Shown here in pieces: positions 1-51,756 of a stretch of DNA of 64,000 nt. Positions within the stretch are counted from its first letter, which is position 1. Every line of letters begins with the position of its first letter. The notes beneath the pieces were generated by a model. It worked only from the letters and a program-made list of their open reading frames with translations. It was not told the DNA's origin and did not search any database. The DNA lies in the NCBI GenBank assembly GCA_016283355.1, contig JAEEMS010000013.1:1-64000 (forward strand). The letters are read 5' to 3'. The DNA comes from Elusimicrobiaceae bacterium. GTDB lineage: Bacteria > Elusimicrobiota > Elusimicrobia > Elusimicrobiales > Elusimicrobiaceae. The position numbers and the translations under genes were made by a program.

Positions 1-1596
1 AACCAAACGGCGGACCAGTTAGTGGTAGAAAGCTCCTACAGTGGTGATGCTACCTTATCCTTAAGGAACGTTGGCGCGACAGCCAATGCCACAACCGGGG
101 ATGGCATCAAGCTGGTAGATTTTGCAGATGGTGCGACGGTAAATGGGTCGTTTAATTTGGCCGGCGGCAAATGGGAAGAAGGGGCGTATGAATATACGCT
201 CAATCAAGGGACGGACCGGGACTATTACTTACGCAGTAATGGGGAAGATCCGTACACAGACACATTTAAGACGATGTTAAACATCCCGATGTTAAACGTA
301 ATAGTAGCGCAGACGGGCATGAACTCATTACAACGTCGTTTAGGTGATTTGCGCAATATGGACAACACCAACAAACGCAACGGGGTATGGGTACGCAACT
401 ATTATAAAGACATGACGGTAAGCGACCTGATAGACACGGACATGAACCTATTTGGCGGGGAAGCAGGGTATGACTGGTTATTTAGAGCCGATGAACCGAC
501 AAAACTCTATGCAGGTGTGTTGGTAGGGTATGTAAAGGCGGATGGTATTAAGACGAAGAAAGACAACGGCGCGTATGAGAAGGGAGACGGAGAATCTCCG
601 ACGGTAGGTATTTATGCGACGTTGATGGACCAATCGGGGTGGTTTGTAGATATAGCGGCGAGGAACTTCTGGACGAAGCTAAACATGAAGCATCATGAGA
701 ACCTGGGCTCGACGTTATTGACATACACGCCGAAGCGGAACCTATTGACAGCGAGTGTAGAGGTAGGTAAGAGCATAGAGAACCGCACGTCACGGAATGA
801 CTACGTGAGGATAGAGCCGAAGGTAGAGTTGTCATACTTAAAAGCGGGGAAAGATACGGCAGAAGTAAGCAATGGGAAAGAGCTGACGTATGACTCTGCA
901 GATTATATCAATGCGAAGGCGGCGATCTTGTTATCGTACAATCACATCCGCAACAACGGGTTAATTATCGAGCCGTTGTTAGAGTTAGCGTACCGGTATG
1001 AATTTGCCGGGGAAGGGGATGTGACGTATGATGGTGTAAAGGAGAAGACGAGCTTAAAAGGCGGAACGGCAGAGGTGAATGCGGGGTTGAACATGCAGTT
1101 GACGAAGGACCTGTACTTCTATGCGTTAGGGAGCTATGAAGCCGGCGAGAAGATGAAAGGATGGGGTGTACATGCGGGGATCCGGTATACGTTTGGGGAA
1201 GATGCGAACAATTATCGGCCGACGCAACAGCGGTATACGCAAACGCAGTATACACGTCCGACAAACAATACGCAGCAACGGCAACAGCGATATATCCAAA
1301 CGCAGCAGCGGTATACACGTCCCAGCAGCACGCAGCAGACGCAGACGCGGTACGTGACGCAGCAACAGACGACGTATACACAACCGGTGCAGACGCGGTA
1401 TGTGACGCAGCAGACGACGTATACGCAACCGGTACAACAGCGGTATGTAACGCAACAAACGACGTATACGCAACCGGTGCAAACGCAGCGAACGGTGACT
1501 ACTACTACGACAACGACGAACGCGACGAATGCGGGAGATCCGACGTTACGAGGTTTTAGGAAGCCGAAGAAGATCCAATACATCAAAGACAATTAA
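1..1596 (+). CDS. Autotransporter beta-barrel protein, 3' part, with repetitive C-terminal tail
   Basis: The frame is open to the window edge, so the start and most of the passenger lie upstream. From about codon 110 of the visible part the protein looks like an autotransporter beta domain: alternating amphipathic strands such as WVRNYYKDM, YAGVLVGYV and FVDIAARNFW, ending near HAGIRYTFG. In typical members that strand is the C-terminus. Here about 130 more residues follow, rich in Gln, Thr, Tyr, Pro and Arg, including three near-identical 15-16 residue units built on RYVTQQTTYTQPVQ, then a Thr run and a basic end (GFRKPKKIQYIKDN). By family knowledge the barrel sits in the outer membrane and exports an N-terminal passenger. 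The tail would lie in the periplasm, and its role is unknown. A 157-bp copy of the gene end recurs at 3103-3259. The barrel call is good; the passenger is not visible. Confidence 0.8.
   Translation, partial: NQTADQLVVESSYSGDATLSLRNVGATANATTGDGIKLVDFADGATVNGSFNLAGGKWEEGAYEYTLNQGTDRDYYLRSNGEDPYTDTFKTMLNIPMLNVIVAQTGMNSLQRRLGDLRNMDNTNKRNGVWVRNYYKDMTVSDLIDTDMNLFGGEAGYDWLFRADEPTKLYAGVLVGYVKADGIKTKKDNGAYEKGDGESPTVGIYATLMDQSGWFVDIAARNFWTKLNMKHHENLGSTLLTYTPKRNLLTASVEVGKSIENRTSRNDYVRIEPKVELSYLKAGKDTAEVSNGKELTYDSADYINAKAAILLSYNHIRNNGLIIEPLLELAYRYEFAGEGDVTYDGVKEKTSLKGGTAEVNAGLNMQLTKDLYFYALGSYEAGEKMKGWGVHAGIRYTFGEDANNYRPTQQRYTQTQYTRPTNNTQQRQQRYIQTQQRYTRPSSTQQTQTRYVTQQQTTYTQPVQTRYVTQQTTYTQPVQQRYVTQQTTYTQPVQTQRTVTTTTTTTNATNAGDPTLRGFRKPKKIQYIKDN
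1348..1485 (+). repeat. Three tandem 45-48 bp coding repeats in the autotransporter tail
   Basis: Copies lie at 1348-1395 (48 bp), 1396-1440 and 1441-1485 (45 bp each), in frame, each encoding RYVTQQ(Q)TTYTQPVQ plus one or two residues. More degenerate versions (RYTQTQ, RYIQTQQ) lie just upstream from about 1231. Units differ mostly at synonymous positions. Confidence 0.85.
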
Positions 1597-1617
1597 GATT
1601 GGAAAGGCAAAAAATTA

Positions 1618-1643
1618 TCCCCCGGGTAACCGGGGGATTTTTG
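1618..1643 (+). terminator. Intrinsic terminator after the autotransporter gene
   Basis: A GC-rich hairpin with arms TCCCCCGG and CCGGGGGA and a GTAA loop is followed by a T run. A very similar hairpin follows the duplicated gene tail at 3281-3309. Confidence 0.85.
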
Positions 1644-1670
1644 TAGGACTATTATTTGGGGAAGATGAAA

Positions 1671-2765
1671 CTATTGCCGGGGGGAATTAACGCGGTCGCG
1701 AACTTTTTGAGCAACTTTTCTAGTATCCGGCGCAATTAGGCCATATTGTTGGGCATATAATTTAAAAATAACACACCACATTGGTTCTATCGTAGAAAAT
1801 TCGTCACTTTCTCCGATATGTTCCAAGCAGAAGTCATACATTTTTTTGGCATTATCCTTCATTTTTTTCGTAACAGGTTTGATAATGACAACCTCCCAAG
1901 CTTTTTGGGCTTGTGTAAGATCTTCTGATCCTAATTTGCCTACGATACTGGCCAATGCAGTAAGGTTGTAAGACTTGCCCGGCAGATGGTAATTTTGAGG
2001 GGATAGGATTTTTTCCAATAATTTGATTTTGAGAAGATAGAAGGGTTCCTTGTCCCCTGTTTCTTTCGCTCTGGACCAGGCTCCTTCTATGAACGATTGC
2101 GCGTCTTTGAATACATCTCTATAAGTTATATTATAAAGTCTGTCTTCTGCCAGATCAGAGGATTCTTTAGAGTGCCCGATTGTTTTGGCAAGAAGAACGG
2201 TGTCATACGCTTCAATTCCGAGTCGGTGGAGAACTGGTTTGTCCTTGATTACCGGAGCTGTGGGCCATATAAACAAATTTTCTTTGACAATGGGTTCTAG
2301 CCAAGTATTGTGCTTATAAATCTTATAGAACTTTACCGAATTCTCTTTGTCGAATTTACCAGCATCGTAAGGATTACTCCCATAGAGGTAACGATAATGC
2401 TTAGCTAATGCATCAGATAGAATATCTGAAAGACGTACTGCATTTAACACATAGTCGCGGTATATATATTTCGGTTCTTTGGCAGAGTGTTGTACATCTA
2501 CTGTGTCACGCCAGTCGCCAAAACAATAGGCGGGGATTTGATCTTTTCTAATTGTTCCTTCCGGGCACGGAGGAATAGAGTCAAGGAATTTTTTAGCTGC
2601 GGAGTACTGTTTAGTACGTAGCATTTCAAAAACCTTGGCGGTTAGTTGTTTGTGTGCTTTTCGAGATCCCGAGTAATTGGGTAAGTCGACAGGGTTATAT
2701 CCAAACGCAAGCGGGCCTAGGATTATAGCAAGGCCAATTGCACACATTTTTTTTAAGTTGTGCAT
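1671..2765 (-). CDS. Secreted protein of unknown family (364 aa)
   Basis: I do not recognise the family. The chosen ATG at 2765 is preceded by AAGGAG at good spacing and opens with a signal peptide (HNLKKMCAIGLAIILGPLAFG); an in-frame ATG at 2846 would put 27 charged residues ahead of it and lacks a clear ribosome site. The mature part is mostly helical and charged, with a few Cys (CPEG, YCFGDW, DFCLEH), and no catalytic motif is obvious. It lies tail-to-tail with the autotransporter gene and is the cargo of the first of two similarly flanked units. The 45-bp upstream element also found before the 865- and 1778-residue secreted proteins lies at 2892-2936. Function cannot be assigned. Confidence 0.75.
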   Translation of the reverse strand: MHNLKKMCAIGLAIILGPLAFGYNPVDLPNYSGSRKAHKQLTAKVFEMLRTKQYSAAKKFLDSIPPCPEGTIRKDQIPAYCFGDWRDTVDVQHSAKEPKYIYRDYVLNAVRLSDILSDALAKHYRYLYGSNPYDAGKFDKENSVKFYKIYKHNTWLEPIVKENLFIWPTAPVIKDKPVLHRLGIEAYDTVLLAKTIGHSKESSDLAEDRLYNITYRDVFKDAQSFIEGAWSRAKETGDKEPFYLLKIKLLEKILSPQNYHLPGKSYNLTALASIVGKLGSEDLTQAQKAWEVVIIKPVTKKMKDNAKKMYDFCLEHIGESDEFSTIEPMWCVIFKLYAQQYGLIAPDTRKVAQKVRDRVNSPRQ

Positions 2766-2891
2766 GTCTTTCTCCTTATGCCTGTTATACCGTTGTACAG
2801 CGTTTTTGACTCCGTTGGGTAACGGTACAGGCATTTTATGTTTCATCTTTTGTGTTTCTCTTACTATTAATGCATATTAAAGTGGTAGTGC

Positions 2892-2949
2892 ACCAGGGCC
2901 AAAAGGCCCAGCCAAAAAAAGAAAAAGGGCCTAGATGCTTTATAGGTCC
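2892..2949 (-). promoter_or_regulatory. Composite upstream element, copy A
   Basis: Read toward the gene at 1671-2765, the element has GGACCTATA, 4 nt, ATCTAGG, then 33 nt further on CTGGT, which closes the palindromic box GGGCCTTTTGGCCC. The 45-nt core (2892-2936) aligns without gaps to copies at 51694-51738 and 59992-60036. Its inner end may serve as a -35 region. That role is inference; the repeated layout is seen directly. Confidence 0.6.
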
Positions 2950-3009
2950 AATTGGTATTGTGAACGGGATAAACGTAAGTCGGGGAAATCCTCAATAAAA
3001 ACCCCTGAA

Positions 3010-3102
3010 TTAAAATAGTACAATACCTCTATGAAAGAACTTTTTTCGCTTTTCCTTGTGTTTGGTAAAATCGGTCTGTTTACACTCGGTGGCGGGTATG
3101 CT
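3010..3102 (+). pseudogene. Remnant of the 5' end of a chromate transporter gene
   Basis: From the ATG at 3031 to 3102 the sequence matches the start of the intact transporter gene (4590-4661) at 68 of 72 positions, and the preceding TAC-AAT box and start region also correspond. The match stops abruptly after codon 24, where an out-of-frame copy of the autotransporter gene tail begins. The 163-codon frame cannot make a transporter. The 265 bases upstream (2766-3030) hold only the regulatory element at 2892-2949. Confidence 0.85.
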
Positions 3103-3259
3103 GCGGTATGTAACGCAACAAACGACGTATACGCAACCGGTGCAAACACAGCGAACGGTGACTACTACTACGACAACGACGAACGCGACGAATGCGGGAG
3201 ATCCGACGTTACGAGGTTTTAGGAAGCCGAAGAAGATCCAATACATCAAGAACAATTAA
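3103..3259 (+). pseudogene. Remnant copy of the autotransporter gene 3' end
   Basis: The 157 bp are colinear with 1440-1596 and identical at 154 positions. The segment starts exactly at the third tail repeat and runs through the stop codon, ending KNN where the parent has KDN. It is fused to the chromate transporter remnant in a different frame, so it is not a working fusion. A terminator like the one after the parent gene follows. Confidence 0.9.
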
Positions 3260-3280
3260 GATATATTGAGAGCAAACAAA

Positions 3281-3309
3281 AAATCCCCCGGGTGACCCCG
3301 GGGGATTTT
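3281..3309. terminator. Bidirectional hairpin terminator
   Basis: The hairpin AAATCCCCCGGG-tga-CCCGGGGGATTTT has A and T runs on both sides. It can end transcription from the remnant on the plus strand and from the subtilase gene on the minus strand. Confidence 0.8.
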
Positions 3310-3324
3310 AATTGTTCCTTGTAA

Positions 3325-4539
3325 CTATTGTGCTTCTTCTTGTCGTTTTCTTTTTTGTAAATTCTCTATTAACTTGGCAGGTTGCAATAGGTTGTAGGCC
3401 TCAAACTCTACGCCTTGAAATTCGCATGTAGGATTTAAGGCGGTTTTCTTCCACGCTTCCGTGAAAATTTCTTTGGTTAAATTGGGGTACACTTGCACGG
3501 CCAATGCGTACATCCCCACTATATACGGCACCGCCCATGAAAAACCGCCATGGGCATAGTGTACATAATGGTTTTCCCCGGTGGGAGAAGCTGTTACGCG
3601 AAAGCATGTGGGAACGGTCAAATAATCGCGCTGTTGTTTGTAGTAATCTGAATCTTTTCCCCACCAATAGGTCGGATGGCAGTAAGGGAGTTTATCAGGA
3701 TGCGATAAAGAATGATTTCGACTAAGAGATTCAACATCCCAATTCCCCGCCATAAACACAGCAACGCCGCTTTCTTCCAGTTTCTTTTTTGCATCTAAGA
3801 ACTGGCTGATCCCCGGAGTGTTTTTGAAATAGGTGCCTCTGTCGCTAAATCCCTGCGAGATTCCCACCGCGCGCACTCTTTGCTCGGGCGGAAGTTGTTT
3901 GTTCAACTCGTAAATTTCATCTAAGGCAGTCGCAAAAGGGGTGGCATCCCGACTAATCCCTGCCGCGTAGAAAAACAGATTGGCTTTAGGTGCCACGCCT
4001 ACTTTTTTACCAACAGCGATAGAGGCCAATGCTGCACCGTGCATAGCGGCGTTCGATTTTTTCATATTTGGCATTACTTTATACCATACAAGCGCGTGTT
4101 TATACTCTTTGTGGTTGGTTTGTATCGGTTGATCCAAAAGTGCTATGGACACACCGCGCCCGTCAATGCCTTTTTTGTGAAGAGCATAGAGGCCTAACCC
4201 AGGGTTTTTGCCGTTTTTCAGAATTTTCTTTGGGTTAAATCCTTTGGGCAATTTATTTTTTGGTGGAAATTTAGTAACTTCGTCAAAGCGTAAGATGTCT
4301 GCCAGTTCTTCAACAGTATAGTTTGAGAAATCCCAATCGGATAAGTCATAAGAGCGTACATCCAATTCGTCGGGTACCAAAACTTTCTCTTTGGGCTGTC
4401 CGTTAGGAAAATCCTCTTTCATAAAGGAAGAATAATCAGCTGCTTTTGCACTGCTAGCAATATCGGGAAGTTTAATTTGTGCGGCCACAAATCCGGTTGT
4501 GGCAAAACAAAATGCGATTGTTAAAATAATTTTTTTCAT
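3325..4539 (-). CDS. Secreted subtilisin-like serine protease (S8-type), 404 aa
   Basis: A signal peptide (KKIILTIAFCFATTGFVAAQ) precedes a region of about 100 residues that may act as a propeptide. The catalytic elements then appear in S8 order: Asp136 in GVSIALLDQPI, His167 in MHGAALASIAVG followed by the typical GVAPKANLFFYA strand, Asn266 in VAVFMAGN, and Ser334 in GGFSWAVPYIVG, which replaces the usual GTSMAAPHVAG. All four residues are present, so activity is plausible although the sequence is divergent. It is the cargo of the second of two units with the same flanks and sits divergently, 50 bp from the chromate transporter gene. Likely substrates are extracellular or periplasmic proteins. 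The fold call is firm; specificity is unknown. Confidence 0.8.
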   Translation of the reverse strand: MKKIILTIAFCFATTGFVAAQIKLPDIASSAKAADYSSFMKEDFPNGQPKEKVLVPDELDVRSYDLSDWDFSNYTVEELADILRFDEVTKFPPKNKLPKGFNPKKILKNGKNPGLGLYALHKKGIDGRGVSIALLDQPIQTNHKEYKHALVWYKVMPNMKKSNAAMHGAALASIAVGKKVGVAPKANLFFYAAGISRDATPFATALDEIYELNKQLPPEQRVRAVGISQGFSDRGTYFKNTPGISQFLDAKKKLEESGVAVFMAGNWDVESLSRNHSLSHPDKLPYCHPTYWWGKDSDYYKQQRDYLTVPTCFRVTASPTGENHYVHYAHGGFSWAVPYIVGMYALAVQVYPNLTKEIFTEAWKKTALNPTCEFQGVEFEAYNLLQPAKLIENLQKRKRQEEAQ

Positions 4540-4589
4540 ACGTTCCCCACAACTACCATTATAACAAAGTTAATTGGTACAATAATTTT

Positions 4590-5126
4590 ATGAAGGTGCT
4601 TTTTTCACTTTTCCTTGTGTTTGGTAAAATCGGTCTGTTTACACTCGGTGGCGGGTATGCTATGGTGCCGCTGATGGAGCGTGAGTTATGTGGGAAATAT
4701 TTGTCCAGGGAAGATTTCTTGGACACGTTGGCCCTTGCCCAAGCCGCTCCCGGTATTATGGCTATTAACACGGCCATTTTAACCGGCTACAAAGTTCACG
4801 GTGTGTGGGGCGCTATTTTTGCCGCACTGGGTGCAGCCCTACCTTCTTTTATCATCATTTTGATTTTGGCTATATTTTTTAAAACGTATCAACAAAACCC
4901 AATCATCCGCCGTATATTTATGGGAGTGCGCCCGGCGGTCATCGCACTTATTTTAGTACCGGTATTTAATTTGGCCCGCGCGGCAAACATTACCTGGAAA
5001 ACGGTGTGGATTCCTATTGTGGTTGCATTGGCGGTTTGGGCGATGGGTATTTCCCCGGTGTACCTTGTTATTTTAGCGGGGCTGGGCGGCTACTTGTACG
5101 GACGCGCCGAGGGAGAAACAAAATGA
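4590..5126 (+). CDS. chrA: Chromate transporter family protein, first half-size subunit
   Basis: A 178-residue membrane protein of the CHR family, short-chain type. It opens with FGKIGLFTLGGGYAMVPLMERE and has the family signature LALAQAAPGIMAINTAILTGYK, followed by several membrane segments. Short-chain CHR proteins act as pairs of one-domain subunits; the second follows with an ATGA overlap. Family members export chromate or related oxyanions, but the true substrate here is unknown. The first 24 codons are duplicated at 3031-3102. A TACAAT box at 4578-4583 lies 6 nt before the ATG and there is no ribosome site, so the mRNA is probably leaderless. Confidence 0.85.
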   Translation: MKVLFSLFLVFGKIGLFTLGGGYAMVPLMERELCGKYLSREDFLDTLALAQAAPGIMAINTAILTGYKVHGVWGAIFAALGAALPSFIIILILAIFFKTYQQNPIIRRIFMGVRPAVIALILVPVFNLARAANITWKTVWIPIVVALAVWAMGISPVYLVILAGLGGYLYGRAEGETK

Positions 5127-5650
5127 TTTTTCTGAAATTATTTTTTACTTTCTTTAAAATAGGCCTTTTTAACTTTGGCGGTGGATACGCCATGATTTCG
5201 TTTATCCAAAATGAAATTGTACATAAACACGCCTATCTTTCCACCGCTCAGTTTACCGACATTGTAGCCCTAAGCCAAGTGACACCCGGCCCGGTGGGAA
5301 TCAATATGGCCACCTATACGGGTTACAGTATAACGCACAGTGTGTGGGGGGCGGTGGTAGCTACGGTGGCGGTGTGTTTGCCGTCGTTTATTTTGATGAT
5401 TTTTATTAGCAGATTTTTTCTGCAATATCGCCGCAGTAAGACCGTAGAAGACGTTTTAAAAGGTCTTCGTCCGGCGGTAGTAGGTTTGATTGCAGCAGCT
5501 GCGCTCGTGCTTTGTAATGTGCAAAACATCATCGACTATAAAAGCGTTCTGCTTCTCATTGGGGCGTTTTTGGCAGTATGGAAATTCAAAGCCGGGCCGA
5601 TTTTTGTATTAGTGATTAGTGGCGCGTTGGGCTTTGTGCTTTACACCTAA
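5123..5650 (+). CDS. chrA: Chromate transporter family protein, second half-size subunit
   Basis: A 175-residue homologue of its upstream neighbour, with the same architecture: FFKIGLFNFGGGYAMISFIQNEI, then VALSQVTPGPVGINMATYTGY, then four or so hydrophobic segments. The start at 5123 overlaps the preceding stop (ATGA), so the two are translationally coupled and probably form a heteromeric, antiparallel transporter. A longer frame starting at 5006 is merely open sequence inside the first gene. No clear terminator follows. Confidence 0.85.
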   Translation: MIFLKLFFTFFKIGLFNFGGGYAMISFIQNEIVHKHAYLSTAQFTDIVALSQVTPGPVGINMATYTGYSITHSVWGAVVATVAVCLPSFILMIFISRFFLQYRRSKTVEDVLKGLRPAVVGLIAAAALVLCNVQNIIDYKSVLLLIGAFLAVWKFKAGPIFVLVISGALGFVLYT

Positions 5651-17258: not shown

Positions 17259-18056
17259 TCATTCAACATCAACAGATATCCTAAAATTAATTGGAGCAGA
17301 AGGAATATATTTTACTCGCTTAGGGGATTCATATGTGTAAGCTCCCCCGGGTTTTGTTTGATGAGCAGAAAAATATAGCACATCACTAGAAATCGACCCC
17401 GTTGTAAACTTTACAAAGAGGCCACGCGTCCAGTAAGCGTTACCTTGAGCGTCCCATTTGCTGATATATTGGGTACGAGTTACACGTACTATGCCAAACT
17501 CGTTGCTCGTGTGGCTATTCCTTCGATCAGCAATGGCATCCATACATCCCGGCCATGCTTTACATATCTTTTCATTAGGGAAAAGAATACTGAGATTTTC
17601 CACTAAAGCATGAGTAGAAGGTTCCTGCGGCAACGGGTGCCCTGGGAATTTATTTCGCATTTCGGTGGGCGGAAGATATTTGACATTTCCACCCTTTTTA
17701 TCTGAAATCCGCAAAAATTCATAAGCTTTTATTTGACCGTTTTCGCGGGTTTGTGCGTAAAAACGGTGCCACCACACGGCTTCTTTTCCATCCCAGTCGG
17801 GAATCCAATGTGCGACTTCAGTATCTATCAACTGAAAAGAAACAGTATTGGCAGATTTTAGTCCTACCCATTCCTGGCAGCCGGGCCATTCTTCGCACAT
17901 TTGTTTCACGCGTTCATCAGCATAGAGGTTGCGTTGCTTAACAGCCGCTTTCTTTGCATTGGTGGCCAATTCTTTTGCAGAGGGTTCTTTAGCAACAGAT
18001 GCAACGCTAATTAAAACCAATGCAAAAGTCGTTGTTAGTGTTATTAGTTTTTTCAT
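17259..18056 (-). CDS. Secreted paralog-family protein, array member 5
   Basis: Last of five tandem paralogs on the minus strand; 265 residues from the ATG at 18056, after AATGGAGTGATT. The signal peptide is KKLITLTTTFALVLISVASVA. The family core is visible: RVKQMCEEWPGCQEWV, then QLIDTEVAHWIPDWDGKEAVWWHRFYAQT, a FPGHPLPQEPSTHA motif and a second Cys-Trp block, ICKAWPGCMDAIA. The C-terminus differs most from the other members. I do not recognise the family. Paired Cys within CEEWPGC suggest a disulfide in an exported protein. Confidence 0.75.
   Translation of the reverse strand: MKKLITLTTTFALVLISVASVAKEPSAKELATNAKKAAVKQRNLYADERVKQMCEEWPGCQEWVGLKSANTVSFQLIDTEVAHWIPDWDGKEAVWWHRFYAQTRENGQIKAYEFLRISDKKGGNVKYLPPTEMRNKFPGHPLPQEPSTHALVENLSILFPNEKICKAWPGCMDAIADRRNSHTSNEFGIVRVTRTQYISKWDAQGNAYWTRGLFVKFTTGSISSDVLYFSAHQTKPGGAYTYESPKRVKYIPSAPINFRISVDVE
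17864..17912. repeat. 49-bp perfect repeat shared by array members 5 and 4 (copy 1)
   Basis: Identical to 18674-18722. It encodes the Cys-Glu-Glu-Trp-Pro-Gly-Cys motif region, while flanking coding sequence differs. Confidence 0.85.
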
Positions 18057-18068
18057 AATCACTCCATT

Positions 18069-18863
18069 TTAAAAAATAAAGTCCGGGTGGTAAGGACATT
18101 GGTTAATTTTGTGCGGATTGTGATGAATATAAGCCCCACCCACTTTTTTTTGCTCTGTATAGAATGCCAAAGAAGCGCTTCCGCCGGAATAATAGTAAAG
18201 TTGTACATACAAACTGCGCGCCCAAAGAGCGTTGCCGTTTTCATCATAGTTATGAATATACTGTTCCTCTACTGCTTTACTGATACTGGCCATTTTTTCT
18301 TTAAGCAGTTCTTTACACTTATCCCATTTTAGACATTTCGCTAAACTATCGTTGGATGTAGTAGACACGTGGTAACGTGCGTGCTCGGAAGGGTGTTCTT
18401 TTATCGGATGTTCCGGAAATTTTTTAATTTCATCAGGAATGAGATAAATATACCCGCGGCTTTCCTTGATGTATTTGAGAGTGTCGGTATGAGAATTATC
18501 CCTGTCTATTTTAATTCGTTCAAAGCGGTAGGCCTTTGCTTTGCTACCTTCCACTGTTTGCAGATAAAAGATATGTTTCCAAAGGGTCTCATTTTTCTCA
18601 AAATGAGTTATCCTGTGTTCTATTTCCGCATCAATCACGTGGAAGGAGCCGGGTTGCTGGGCGGCGCGGTTGGCTACCCATTCCTGGCAGCCGGGCCATT
18701 CTTCGCACATTTGTTTCACGCGTGGTTTGCTGTAAATAGAGGCATATTTGCTTGTTTCCCGTTTTACGGCCGCTGCCAATTCTTTAGGGGTGCTCTTGGC
18801 GTATACATAAGAAACGCTTGCCAAAATGAGCAAGGTACTGATAATCACAAATAATTTCTTCAT
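18069..18863 (-). CDS. Secreted paralog-family protein, array member 4
   Basis: 264 residues from the ATG at 18863, preceded by GAGGAGCATAAA; an upstream ATG at 18956 would lie inside the previous gene and put 31 polar residues before the signal peptide KKLFVIISTLLILASVSYVYA. It shares VKQMCEEWPGCQEWVANR, DAEIEHRI, KKFPEHPIKEHPSEHARY and a second block, LAKCLKWDKCKELL. A 49-bp stretch coding the Cys-Trp motif is identical to one in member 5. Function unknown. Confidence 0.75.
   Translation of the reverse strand: MKKLFVIISTLLILASVSYVYAKSTPKELAAAVKRETSKYASIYSKPRVKQMCEEWPGCQEWVANRAAQQPGSFHVIDAEIEHRITHFEKNETLWKHIFYLQTVEGSKAKAYRFERIKIDRDNSHTDTLKYIKESRGYIYLIPDEIKKFPEHPIKEHPSEHARYHVSTTSNDSLAKCLKWDKCKELLKEKMASISKAVEEQYIHNYDENGNALWARSLYVQLYYYSGGSASLAFYTEQKKVGGAYIHHNPHKINQCPYHPDFIF
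18674..18722. repeat. 49-bp perfect repeat shared by array members 5 and 4 (copy 2)
   Basis: Identical to 17864-17912, within array member 4. Confidence 0.85.
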
Positions 18864-18879
18864 TTTATGCTCCTCATCA

Positions 18880-19668
18880 TTAGTGACGTATAAAGAAGGC
18901 AAAATCAGGTTGTCTGTCTGCTTCCTGCAAAACAGAGTTTGCCTTTTTTGCATCAATATATTTAAACGGTTCCCCTAATTTATTTTGGCGTGCTATTAAT
19001 GCCCCTTTAGGGAAGGAAAGGACATTTAGAAACCAAGGGGCCCAATCCAAGCGGCGCACCCAAAGCGGGTTGTCTTTTTCATCCCAAAGAACGCGTTGTT
19101 GTTCTATGGCGCTCATTACCTGTAACCAGGAATTATCCATCATGGAGCCGGCCCATCTTTTGCGTAGTTTGTTGTCTTTCGGGAGGTCAACGGGGCCAAT
19201 TTCCCAGGTTTCTATTACACACTTAGCGTGTTCGGAAGGCATATCGGTAAACGGGTGTCCGGGGAATTTCTTAATTTCCTTAAGATCAAAACCGAATTCC
19301 TTATCCTTTGCGATAACATAAGCTCGTGTTTGTAAATCTTCCATTGTTTTTATGTACAAGTTGTAATGCCAAATGGATGCTACGCTCCATGGGGATTTCT
19401 TCTCTGGGTTAGTAACATAATATTCCACTTCCGCATCAATAATGTGGAAAGAAGGGTTTTTCTTGTGCTGTTCTTTGGCCCATTTTTCACAACCGGGCCA
19501 TTCTCGGCACATTGTTTTTACGCGGTCGAACATATAGTATTTTTCCTGTTCCAACACTTTACGCGCGATATTGGACTTCAACTTGGAAGTTGTGGCCTGT
19601 GCATATGTGGGTACCAAGCTGATTAAAATGAGTGTTGCACTGAGTAATAAGCAATATAATTTTTTCAT
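18880..19668 (-). CDS. Secreted paralog-family protein, array member 3
   Basis: 262 residues with signal peptide KKLYCLLLSATLILISLVPTYAQ. Family landmarks: RVKTMCREWPGCEKWAKEQ, HIIDAEVEYYVTNPE, KKFPGHPFTDMPSEHAK, DEKDNPLWVRRLDWAPW, and the C-terminal block NKLGEPFKYIDAKKANSVL. It is most like members 1 and 2. The first 92 coding bases are identical at 91 positions to those of member 2, whereas the mature parts diverge. The next gene starts 16 nt after its stop. Function unknown. Confidence 0.75.
   Translation of the reverse strand: MKKLYCLLLSATLILISLVPTYAQATTSKLKSNIARKVLEQEKYYMFDRVKTMCREWPGCEKWAKEQHKKNPSFHIIDAEVEYYVTNPEKKSPWSVASIWHYNLYIKTMEDLQTRAYVIAKDKEFGFDLKEIKKFPGHPFTDMPSEHAKCVIETWEIGPVDLPKDNKLRKRWAGSMMDNSWLQVMSAIEQQRVLWDEKDNPLWVRRLDWAPWFLNVLSFPKGALIARQNKLGEPFKYIDAKKANSVLQEADRQPDFAFFIRH
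19577..19668. repeat. 92-bp near-perfect repeat covering the signal peptide of member 3
   Basis: Matches 20366-20457 at 91 of 92 positions. It spans the start codon, signal peptide and the first mature residues. Confidence 0.85.
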
Positions 19669-19698
19669 AAAATATCCTTTAATACCTTTATCCTATCT

Positions 19699-20457
19699 TT
19701 AGAGAGAAAAATTAGGAGTATCCGAGGAAGATGTTCTATGCAAAATTGAATTTGAATTCTTCGCATCAATATACTTAAACGGATCTCCCAATTTTTGTTG
19801 ACGGGCGATTAATGCCCCTACACGCGTTTTATCGTCAACGGCCCCGGCAAGAGTAAAATCAAGGCGACGTTCCCATCTCGGATTATCTCCATTCTTGTCC
19901 CAAATGACGCGTTGTTGCTCGCTGGCCCATCGAATATGCGGCCAAAAAGGTCCTATGGCTTGGGGCCATTTTTTATATATTTCACTACCTACGTATTTGG
20001 AGTGTTGTGCAGGCATATTGGTAAACGGATGCCCCGGAAATTTTTTGATTTTTTCAGGTAAGGGACGAAAATACTGTTTAGTACTTACAGGAACCGCATA
20101 AATTGTTTGGAGTCTTGCGCGAAACAAGTAAACTTGCGGCCGCCAATCCTCAAACACTTCTATATAAAGGTTATAGGCCCAAACAAGTTCCACGGGGTCT
20201 ATTACGTAGTATTCCACTTCCGCGTCTCTGATTTTAAAGGACGGGTTTTCTTTGTAGCGTGCCATGGCCCATTCCTTGCATTTGGGCCATTCCTCGCATA
20301 TTATTTTTACGCGGTCGGACATGTAAAAATCTTCACGTTCTAATAATTTGTGCACAATGTTGGATTTCAACTTGGAAGTTGTGGCCTGTGCATATGTGGG
20401 TGCCAAGCTGATTAAAATGAGTGTTGCACTGAGTAATAAGCAATATAATTTTTTCAT
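19699..20457 (-). CDS. Secreted paralog-family protein, array member 2
   Basis: 252 residues from the ATG at 20457, which overlaps the stop of member 1 in ATGA and so is translationally coupled. The signal peptide KKLYCLLLSATLILISLAPTYAQ is almost that of member 3. Landmarks are RVKIICEEWPKCKEWAMAR, IRDAEVEYYVIDP, KKFPGHPFTNMPAQHSK, WDKNGDNPRWERRLDF and KLGDPFKYIDAKNSNSIL. An upstream ATG at 20499 is rejected because it lies inside the neighbouring gene. Function unknown. Confidence 0.75.
   Translation of the reverse strand: MKKLYCLLLSATLILISLAPTYAQATTSKLKSNIVHKLLEREDFYMSDRVKIICEEWPKCKEWAMARYKENPSFKIRDAEVEYYVIDPVELVWAYNLYIEVFEDWRPQVYLFRARLQTIYAVPVSTKQYFRPLPEKIKKFPGHPFTNMPAQHSKYVGSEIYKKWPQAIGPFWPHIRWASEQQRVIWDKNGDNPRWERRLDFTLAGAVDDKTRVGALIARQQKLGDPFKYIDAKNSNSILHRTSSSDTPNFSL
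20366..20457. repeat. 92-bp near-perfect repeat covering the signal peptide of member 2
   Basis: Matches 19577-19668 with one difference (Val/Ala in the signal peptide). Confidence 0.85.
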
Positions 20458-21350
20458 TTGTTTGATACCTCTTTTGGGCGATATACTACCGTAATACAAA
20501 AATGTGGAATATAGTGTGCCCTAATTAAAATAGAATTCGCTTTTTTCGCATCAATGTATTTAAACGGTTCTCCTAATTTATTTTGGCGCGCAATCACCGC
20601 ATATCTTTTCATATCTTCGACAGGATATATGCCGGAGAATATAATGTAATCAAAGCGGCGCTCCCAGCAGGGATTGCCGTTTTTGTCCCAAATAACACGC
20701 TGTTGTTCCACGCCTCTTCCCATTTGCCACCAATGTTCATCAGATATTTCCGGCCATCTCTGGCGCATTTTTTTGCTGTGGTAGGGGGCTCCATAACGCT
20801 CTTCCAATTCGTACCTGGCATGGTTGGAGGGCATATCAGTAAATGGGTGGCCGGGGAACTTTGCGATTTTTTGAGGAGTGTCCGGGAAAGAATAAGGATT
20901 TTCGGATTTGTGATTAATTTCCGTTCTAAATACGTAAAATTGTTCTTGTAAATTTTCCAACACTTTTACGTAAAAATTGTGTTGCCAAAAAGGCCATCCA
21001 GAATTCTGTTCAACATAATATTCCACTTCCGCATCAATAATGGTAAATGATGGATTTTCCTTTCGGCGTGTCATGGCCCATTCCTTGCATTTGGGCCATT
21101 CTCGGCACATTGTTTTTACGCGGTCAAACAAATAATACTTTTCACGTTCTAATATTCTGTTACGTTCTGATATCCTGCGCGCTACGTTGCTTTGGAGAGC
21201 AGATTGTGGCTGGTCATCTATAAGACATTTGCGGGGGTGAGCTTGTCTAGTGTTAGCTTGGGAAGTTTGGGCTTGTACATATACCGGGGCAAGCAGAAAA
21301 CTCGCAGACATCAACATAAGTATTCGTTTCAAGGTAAACAATTTCTTCAT
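20454..21350 (-). CDS. Secreted paralog-family protein, array member 1
   Basis: First gene of the array, 298 residues from the ATG at 21350 (ribosome site GGAGCGAACA). Signal peptide KKLFTLKRILMLMSASFLLAPVYVQA. A member-specific insert of about 45 residues (HPRKCLIDDQPQSALQSNVARRISERNRILERE) precedes the shared core: RVKTMCREWPKCKEWAM, IIDAEVEYYVEQNSGWPFWQHNFYVKV, AKFPGHPFTDMPSNHARYE and NKLGEPFKYIDAKKANSIL. A partial copy of the composite upstream element lies at 21407-21451, so all five genes probably share this promoter. Confidence 0.75.
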   Translation of the reverse strand: MKKLFTLKRILMLMSASFLLAPVYVQAQTSQANTRQAHPRKCLIDDQPQSALQSNVARRISERNRILEREKYYLFDRVKTMCREWPKCKEWAMTRRKENPSFTIIDAEVEYYVEQNSGWPFWQHNFYVKVLENLQEQFYVFRTEINHKSENPYSFPDTPQKIAKFPGHPFTDMPSNHARYELEERYGAPYHSKKMRQRWPEISDEHWWQMGRGVEQQRVIWDKNGNPCWERRFDYIIFSGIYPVEDMKRYAVIARQNKLGEPFKYIDAKKANSILIRAHYIPHFCITVVYRPKEVSNK

Positions 21351-21406
21351 TGTTCGCTCCTGTAAGGATACATTTTCCAAAATTCTATAATTTCCCCCAG
21401 ATTATC

Positions 21407-21451
21407 GCAAGGGCCAAAAGACCCAAGTGTTGCGTGGGCCTTTTGACGCCT
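21407..21451 (-). promoter_or_regulatory. Composite upstream element, partial copy D, before the paralog array
   Basis: Read toward the array, the near-palindrome TGGGTCTTTTGGCCC is followed by CTTGC, as in copies A-C. Upstream, an inverted partner GGCGTCAAAAGGCCCA replaces the ATCTAGG half. A TATAGA box follows at 21384-21389, and the first gene starts 57 nt below the element. Confidence 0.45.
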
Positions 21452-51693: not shown

Positions 51694-51756
51694 ACCAGGG
51701 TCAAAAGACCTAAAATAACAAGGTTTTTGGACCTAGATGAAATATAGGCCTTTTGG
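51694..51756 (-). promoter_or_regulatory. Composite upstream element, copy B
   Basis: Read toward the 865-residue protein gene: AAAAGGCCTATA, 4 nt, ATCTAGG (51738-51732), then at the same distance as in copies A and C the palindromic AGGTCTTTTGACCCTGGT. The 45-nt core is 51694-51738. Confidence 0.65.

What the first reader, a model, noticed from the sequence alone, without database searches (positions are those of the whole stretch)
1440..4661. Two consecutive units with the same flanks but different cargo
Left flank, autotransporter gene tail plus terminator: 1440-1643 and 3103-3309. Right flank, promoter box and first 24 codons of the CHR transporter gene: 3010-3102 and up to 4661. Between them lie unrelated minus-strand genes for exported proteins (unknown secreted protein; subtilase). 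Unit lengths are similar (1663 and 1559 bp). The junction at 3102/3103 joins codon 24 of the transporter to the autotransporter tail exactly at a repeat boundary. A tandem duplication explains the flanks but not the cargo; recombination between two strain variants carrying different cargo at the same site explains both. The locus may be a site of cargo exchange.
Basis: partly seen in the sequence, partly recalled or inferred. Interest (0 to 1): 0.7.

Follow-up and report, generated by a model that had tools for sequence, protein, structure and literature searches.

The report
Swapped secreted-protein genes at one site
In an uncultured gut bacterium, two unrelated secreted-protein genes sit side by side, each framed by copies of the same flanks, at a chromosomal site where related species carry other genes or none, which looks like an ordinary gene-exchange hotspot caught mid-change.

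Summary
1440-1641 is repeated at 3103-3309 (92%; coding part 3 differences in 157), and 3018-3102 is repeated at 4577-4661 (92%). Between them lie two unrelated minus-strand exported-protein genes. The window is an Elusimicrobiaceae genome assembled from a metagenome.

Related species support the 'cargo exchange site' reading at genus level. The site lies between amiC and the chromate-transporter pair. In 29 same-genus relatives it is empty in 15 (19-313 bp) and occupied in 14 (650-2750 bp), usually by minus-strand pilin or exported-protein genes. Neighbouring operon boundaries do not vary this way. The sister species is empty.

A third copy of the autotransporter tail plus terminator lies elsewhere, again next to a minus-strand exported gene, in a second variable site. 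No integrase was seen.

I read this as a hotspot of the known minimal-mobile-element type. A second cargo variant was added rather than swapped, through a non-homologous joint at 3102/3103.

In passing: a genus-wide promoter element marks exported-protein genes.

The parts
1..1596 (+). C-terminal part of an AIDA-type autotransporter: barrel plus repetitive T/Q-rich tail; passenger lies on contig C9
   Evidence: TIGR01414 E 3e-56; contig C19 starts inside it; passenger with 41 TIGR04415 repeats on C9
1440..1599 (+). left flank copy 1: end of autotransporter gene (stop 1594-1596)
1611..1641 (.). terminator hairpin, both directions, shared by the convergent autotransporter and cargo 1
1671..2765 (-). 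cargo 1: exported protein of unknown family; paralogs on C27, C3 and C1
2893..2910 (-). copy of the exported-gene promoter element, upstream of cargo 1
3008..3102 (+). right flank copy 1: promoter region and first 24 codons of the CHR gene, a remnant
3102..3103 (.). novel joint, CHR codon 24 to autotransporter tail, without clear microhomology
3103..3259 (+). left flank copy 2: autotransporter tail fragment with stop
3279..3309 (.). terminator hairpin, both directions, copy 2
3325..4539 (-). cargo 2: exported subtilase, catalytic residues D136, H167, S334 kept
   Evidence: PF00082 E 7e-13; invariant in 8 of 8 aligned
4567..4661 (+). right flank copy 2: promoter region and start of the intact CHR gene
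4590..5126 (+). chromate transporter family subunit 1, intact
   Evidence: PF02417 E 5e-46
5123..5650 (+). chromate transporter family subunit 2
   Evidence: PF02417 E 2e-52

Best explanation
The interval between amiC and the CHR transporter pair is a hotspot where genes for exported proteins, mostly on the minus strand, are gained and lost between related gut Elusimicrobiaceae. Shown: the varied content and the empty state in relatives. Inferred: exchange by homologous recombination in the conserved flanking genes, with imported DNA as the likely source. In this genome the site holds an O-heptosyltransferase, a giant AIDA-type autotransporter, cargo 1 and the subtilase. The second cargo was added rather than swapped: a segment running from the autotransporter tail to CHR codon 24 became joined head to tail by a non-homologous joint at 3102/3103. 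This happened either when a variant carrying the other cargo recombined in, for example as a circularised or concatenated fragment entering by one crossover, or as a tandem duplication whose one cargo was later replaced. The truncated CHR start and the autotransporter tail fragment are remnants; the terminator of the fragment still separates the subtilase from upstream transcription (inferred).
For: Repeats, joint and unrelated cargo. amiC-CHR gap of 19-313 bp in 15 of 29 relatives and 650-2750 bp with different genes in 14 of 29; 5 further named loci, 2 empty and 3 occupied. Gaps of 500 bp or more at neighbouring boundaries: rodA-DUF2344 0 of 27, DUF2344-rng 0 of 27, rng-amiC 0 of 28, CHR1-CHR2 0 of 29, CHR2-next gene 0 of 18; the boundary after that 1 of 4. 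At least 6 changes of state on the tree, 5 forced by starred branches; sister G003 is empty. G000 amiC lies on contig C9 followed by the heptosyltransferase and the autotransporter passenger running off the contig end, which fits C19 starting inside the same gene. A third tail copy sits next to a minus-strand exported gene at hydA-tRNA-His, where G009 is empty and G003 has three other genes. ComEC family protein present, PF03772 E 1e-50. No integrase or transposase among the interval proteins scanned.
Against: No genome with only cargo 1 or only the subtilase at this site was found, and no same-species strain could be searched. None of the 14 occupied relatives carries an autotransporter there. 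The C9-C19 join is inferred. ComEC alone does not prove competence. Identity is highest next to the joint and lowest next to the cargo, which a duplication followed by cargo replacement predicts as well. Source DNA is a metagenome assembly; only k-mer logic argues against a false join. Not every cargo protein of the relatives was scanned for family, and the control boundaries are mostly inside operons.
Confidence: 0.66

Rival explanations
1. Tandem duplication first, cargo replacement later: the segment from autotransporter tail to CHR codon 24 duplicated in place, and one copy of the cargo was then replaced by recombination inside the duplicated flanks. (One of the two routes left open inside the best explanation, against import of a variant in one piece.)
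For: Flanks are identical for 101 bp and 54 bp and diverge mostly close to the cargo, as crossovers near the cargo edges would leave.
Against: Needs two events with very short homology on both sides. The same gradient follows from coding constraint: coding parts conserved, non-coding edges free.
Confidence: 0.35
2. Assembly artefact: two strain variants of one locus collapsed into a false tandem.
For: The genome is a 29-contig metagenome assembly, and a contig ends inside the autotransporter gene.
Against: The CHR-to-tail joint is sequence found in neither parent context, so reads must have spanned it. A bubble of two variants gives alternative arms, not a head-to-tail joint. Exact repeats of at most 101 bp are short for a modern assembler (inference). 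No run of N is in the stretch.
Confidence: 0.07
3. A dedicated mobile cassette: the autotransporter tail and terminator are the recognition end of an element that carries minus-strand exported genes.
For: Three tail copies in this genome, each followed by a minus-strand exported gene.
Against: The copies start at different points of the tail and have no common right end: CHR starts follow in two, none at C8. No recombinase seen. The tail was found in no relative among 60.
Confidence: 0.1

Closest known systems
Minimal mobile element (Neisseria; Saunders and Snyder 2002, cited in PMC2649163)
   Same: Different genes between the same two conserved genes, no integrase, exchange thought to use the flanks (definition partly recalled)
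   Different: Here two cargos are present in tandem with duplicated flank ends, and variation was seen between species of a genus rather than strains. The 2002 paper was not read; only passages of PMC2649163 were seen.
Hotspots without mobile elements, with recombination at flanking core genes (Oliveira et al. 2017, PMC5635113)
   Different: Recombination in amiC or CHR was not measured here. Abstract and passages seen.
Homology-facilitated illegitimate recombination (PMC3240628)
   Same: Homology at one end and a non-homologous joint at the other can add a segment
   Different: Only the resulting joint is seen here, not the process. Start of abstract in search listing only.
AIDA-I/TibA-type glycosylated autotransporter with Aah/TibC heptosyltransferase
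   Same: TIGR04414 enzyme directly before a protein with 41 TIGR04415 repeats and, on the other contig, a TIGR01414 barrel
   Different: Has an unusual repetitive T/Q-rich tail after the barrel; its last 25 residues or so were matched only in this genome

Membership tests
Minimal mobile element / hotspot without mobile elements | Same conserved flanking genes hold different genes in different genomes | tested here: met
   14 of 29 relatives occupied with different genes, 15 of 29 empty; 3 occupied and 2 empty of 5 more
Minimal mobile element / hotspot without mobile elements | Variation among strains of one species | not testable with these tools
Minimal mobile element / hotspot without mobile elements | No integrase, transposase or site-specific recombination sequence | tested here: met
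   Heptosyltransferase, autotransporter, cargo 1 and subtilase of G000 scanned with NCBIfam and, passenger apart, with Pfam; a sample of relatives' cargo scanned with Pfam; not every cargo gene
Minimal mobile element / hotspot without mobile elements | Raised homologous recombination in the flanking core genes | not tested
   Needs several strains of one species
Minimal mobile element / hotspot without mobile elements | DNA uptake competence in the host | tested here: inconclusive
   ComEC-family protein found; DprA and uptake machinery not searched, no experiment
Subtilase family S8 | Asp-His-Ser catalytic triad | tested here: met
   D136, H167, S334 invariant in 8 of 8; assignment as the triad from recalled motif positions
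Aah/TibC heptosyltransferase and its autotransporter substrate | TIGR04414 enzyme with strand-loop-strand repeat passenger | tested here: met
   578.7 bits against cut-off 200; 41 repeat stretches

The most novel reading that the evidence does not exclude
These gut Elusimicrobiaceae keep a rotating secretome. Genes for exported proteins travel as self-contained expression units, with their own terminator at one end and sometimes a shared activator-controlled promoter at the other, among a few fixed chromosomal sites (amiC|CHR, hydA|tRNA-His, rlmI-like|porA-like), so that surface and secreted proteins are swapped without any mobile element.
Probability: 0.22. Interest if true: 0.62.

Novelty: new member of a known kind. 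Interest (0 to 1): 0.42.

Why it matters
It documents a mobile-element-free exchange site for exported proteins in an uncultured gut phylum, with one genome apparently fixed in an intermediate two-cargo state that shows how cargo can be added rather than replaced. The flanks give ready primers for typing cargo variants in rumen and gut samples. The promoter element seen in passing gives a direct handle on which exported genes are regulated together.

Tried and rejected
Simple duplication of one cargo: rejected, no homology between the cargos. A dedicated cassette end in the autotransporter tail: considered, not supported because the copies have different ends. A shared promoter element as the mark of all cargo: rejected; it lies before cargo 1 and the C8 protease but not before the subtilase here or in the 9 subtilase loci of relatives examined, nor in the 14 occupied sites of relatives. 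Fold of cargo 1 from a single sequence: useless, mean pLDDT 38.9, so no fold search was made. The subtilase had no PDB match at E 0.001. The exact tail sequence found nothing in viral contigs. GC and GC3 of the cargo were unremarkable. Literature searches 'Elusimicrobiota + autotransporter' and 'Elusimicrobium minutum + pilin + secreted proteins' gave 0 papers; 'Elusimicrobi + regulon + promoter motif' gave 3 papers, seen as listing and abstract starts only.

Full report
What is there. The window is bases 1-64000 of contig C19 (70,701 bases) of a 1.40 Mb, 29-contig genome, completeness 96.3%. Named relatives of the locus are rumen and gut Elusimicrobiaceae, nearly all assembled from metagenomes. 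The coding part of the tail differs at 3 of 157 positions and the last 54 bp before the joint are identical; differences pile up next to the cargo. The joint follows exactly 24 codons of the CHR gene. CHR would continue ATGG and the autotransporter is preceded by ACA, so no clear microhomology is left.

The genes. The left gene is the barrel end of an autotransporter (TIGR01414). Its passenger, with 41 O-heptosylation target repeats, runs off the end of contig C9 behind a TIGR04414 heptosyltransferase and amiC. I therefore infer the order rodA - DUF2344 - rng - amiC - heptosyltransferase - autotransporter - cargo 1 - CHR remnant - tail fragment - subtilase - CHR1 - CHR2. Cargo 1 has no family match. 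Relatives of it are in this genome (C27 at 60% identity; C3, C1) and in 1 of 60 same-genus genomes. The subtilase keeps D136, H167 and S334 in 8 of 8 aligned members. The two cargos are unrelated.

The site in relatives. One search covered 61 genomes, 36 of them same-genus relatives. I fetched the CHR locus of 29 of these 36; the other 7 gave no CHR match at DNA level. amiC is followed by CHR in all 29. The gap is 19-313 bp in 15 and 650-2750 bp in 14. Ten of the 14 hold a pilin-like gene, several with a small helix-turn-helix gene; one of these (G015) also has an ankyrin-repeat protein. Four hold other proteins with signal-peptide-like or membrane-anchored starts. Cargo is on the minus strand in 13 of 14; G026 has the pilin on the plus strand with the regulator inverted. 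Of 14 Elusimicrobia loci from the named collection, 8 match contigs already seen by length and 1 did not reach amiC; the other 5 gave 2 empty and 3 occupied, one with a lipoprotein-like gene where others have a pilin beside a similar regulator. Gaps of 500 bp or more at other boundaries: 0 of 27, 0 of 27, 0 of 28, 0 of 29 and 0 of 18; only the boundary after that has 1 of 4. On a quick protein tree of 30 rows the empty state changes 6 times, 5 forced by starred branches, and the sister G003 is empty.

A second site. A third copy of the tail plus terminator (98 bp exact with copy 1) lies at C8:21872-22017, after hydA and its terminator and before a minus-strand exported protein that I take from its sequence for a trypsin-like protease, without a family match. 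Between hydA and tRNA-His, G009 has about 100 bp and G003 has three other genes. The subtilase itself sits at other places in relatives: after the rlmI-like methyltransferase in G015, G019 and G022, and near sdaA, mntP or their neighbours in 7 others. In this window the first of those places (17259-21380) is filled by five minus-strand genes with signal-peptide-like starts.

Mechanism. Shown: a variable site, unrelated cargo, duplicated flank ends and a non-homologous joint. Inferred: exchange through the conserved flanks by homologous recombination. A ComEC-family gene is present, but competence was not tested. Addition of the second cargo needs one end-joining event. Whether a foreign variant came in as one piece, or a duplication came first and replacement second, cannot be decided; the identity gradient fits both. 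Assembly error is unlikely, because the joint is a sequence absent from both parent contexts and the exact repeats are at most 101 bp, but reads were not available.

Known kinds. The pattern is that of minimal mobile elements and of hotspots with recombination at flanking core genes (passages seen: PMC2649163; PMC5635113). The defining strain-level variation and raised recombination were not testable. I file it as a new member of that kind, with the two-cargo state as its uncommon trait.

In passing: a promoter element. TRGGYCTTTTGGCCCTKG with up to 2 mismatches occurs 905 times in 61 of 61 same-genus genomes against 59 for the reversed pattern, and 31 times in this genome. Of 30 loci taken (1 of the 31 sites was not fetched), 27 are followed within 200 bp by an ORF with a signal-peptide-like start, against 225 of 1453 random positions with an ORF (crude hydrophobicity rule). 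The 27 include one promoter counted twice, L214 and L215. In 17 of 26 sites a TATAAT-like hexamer follows at 20-21 bp (4 of the 30 loci were left out: the three misses and L215), so the final TTG or TGG would be the -35 box and the GGNCC repeat would abut it, as for an activator site (inference).

Noticed in passing
window 2893-2910, 21408-21425, 51695-51712 (-); 31 sites in the genome: Promoter element TRGGYCTTTTGGCCCTKG about 20 bp before a TATAAT-like box, upstream of signal-peptide-like genes in 27 of 30 loci and present in 61 of 61 same-genus genomes. Looks like an activator-controlled exported-protein regulon; one literature search listed no paper evidently on it.
   Followed up: partly
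window 17259-21380: Array of five minus-strand genes with signal-peptide-like starts (one scanned, no Pfam family) between an rlmI-like gene and the porA-like gene, where G015, G019 and G022 have a subtilase.
   Followed up: partly
L002 3873-5308 (G000 C8): Third autotransporter-tail copy with a minus-strand exported protein between hydA and tRNA-His; the site is empty in G009 and filled otherwise in G003.
   Followed up: yes
L100 and L103 against L099 and L110, amiC-CHR gap: The pilin plus helix-turn-helix pair occurs in both orientations at the same site, as if inverted as a unit.
   Followed up: no
window 2766-2830: Long inverted repeat (GCCTGTACCGTT ... AACGGTATAACAGGC) in the leader of cargo 1, kept in the C27 paralog (seen); possible RNA regulator.
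   Followed up: no
G000 C3:41375-44022, C3:105048, C1:16837, C27:8362: Lineage-specific expansion of the cargo-1 family, three copies in tandem on C3.
   Followed up: partly
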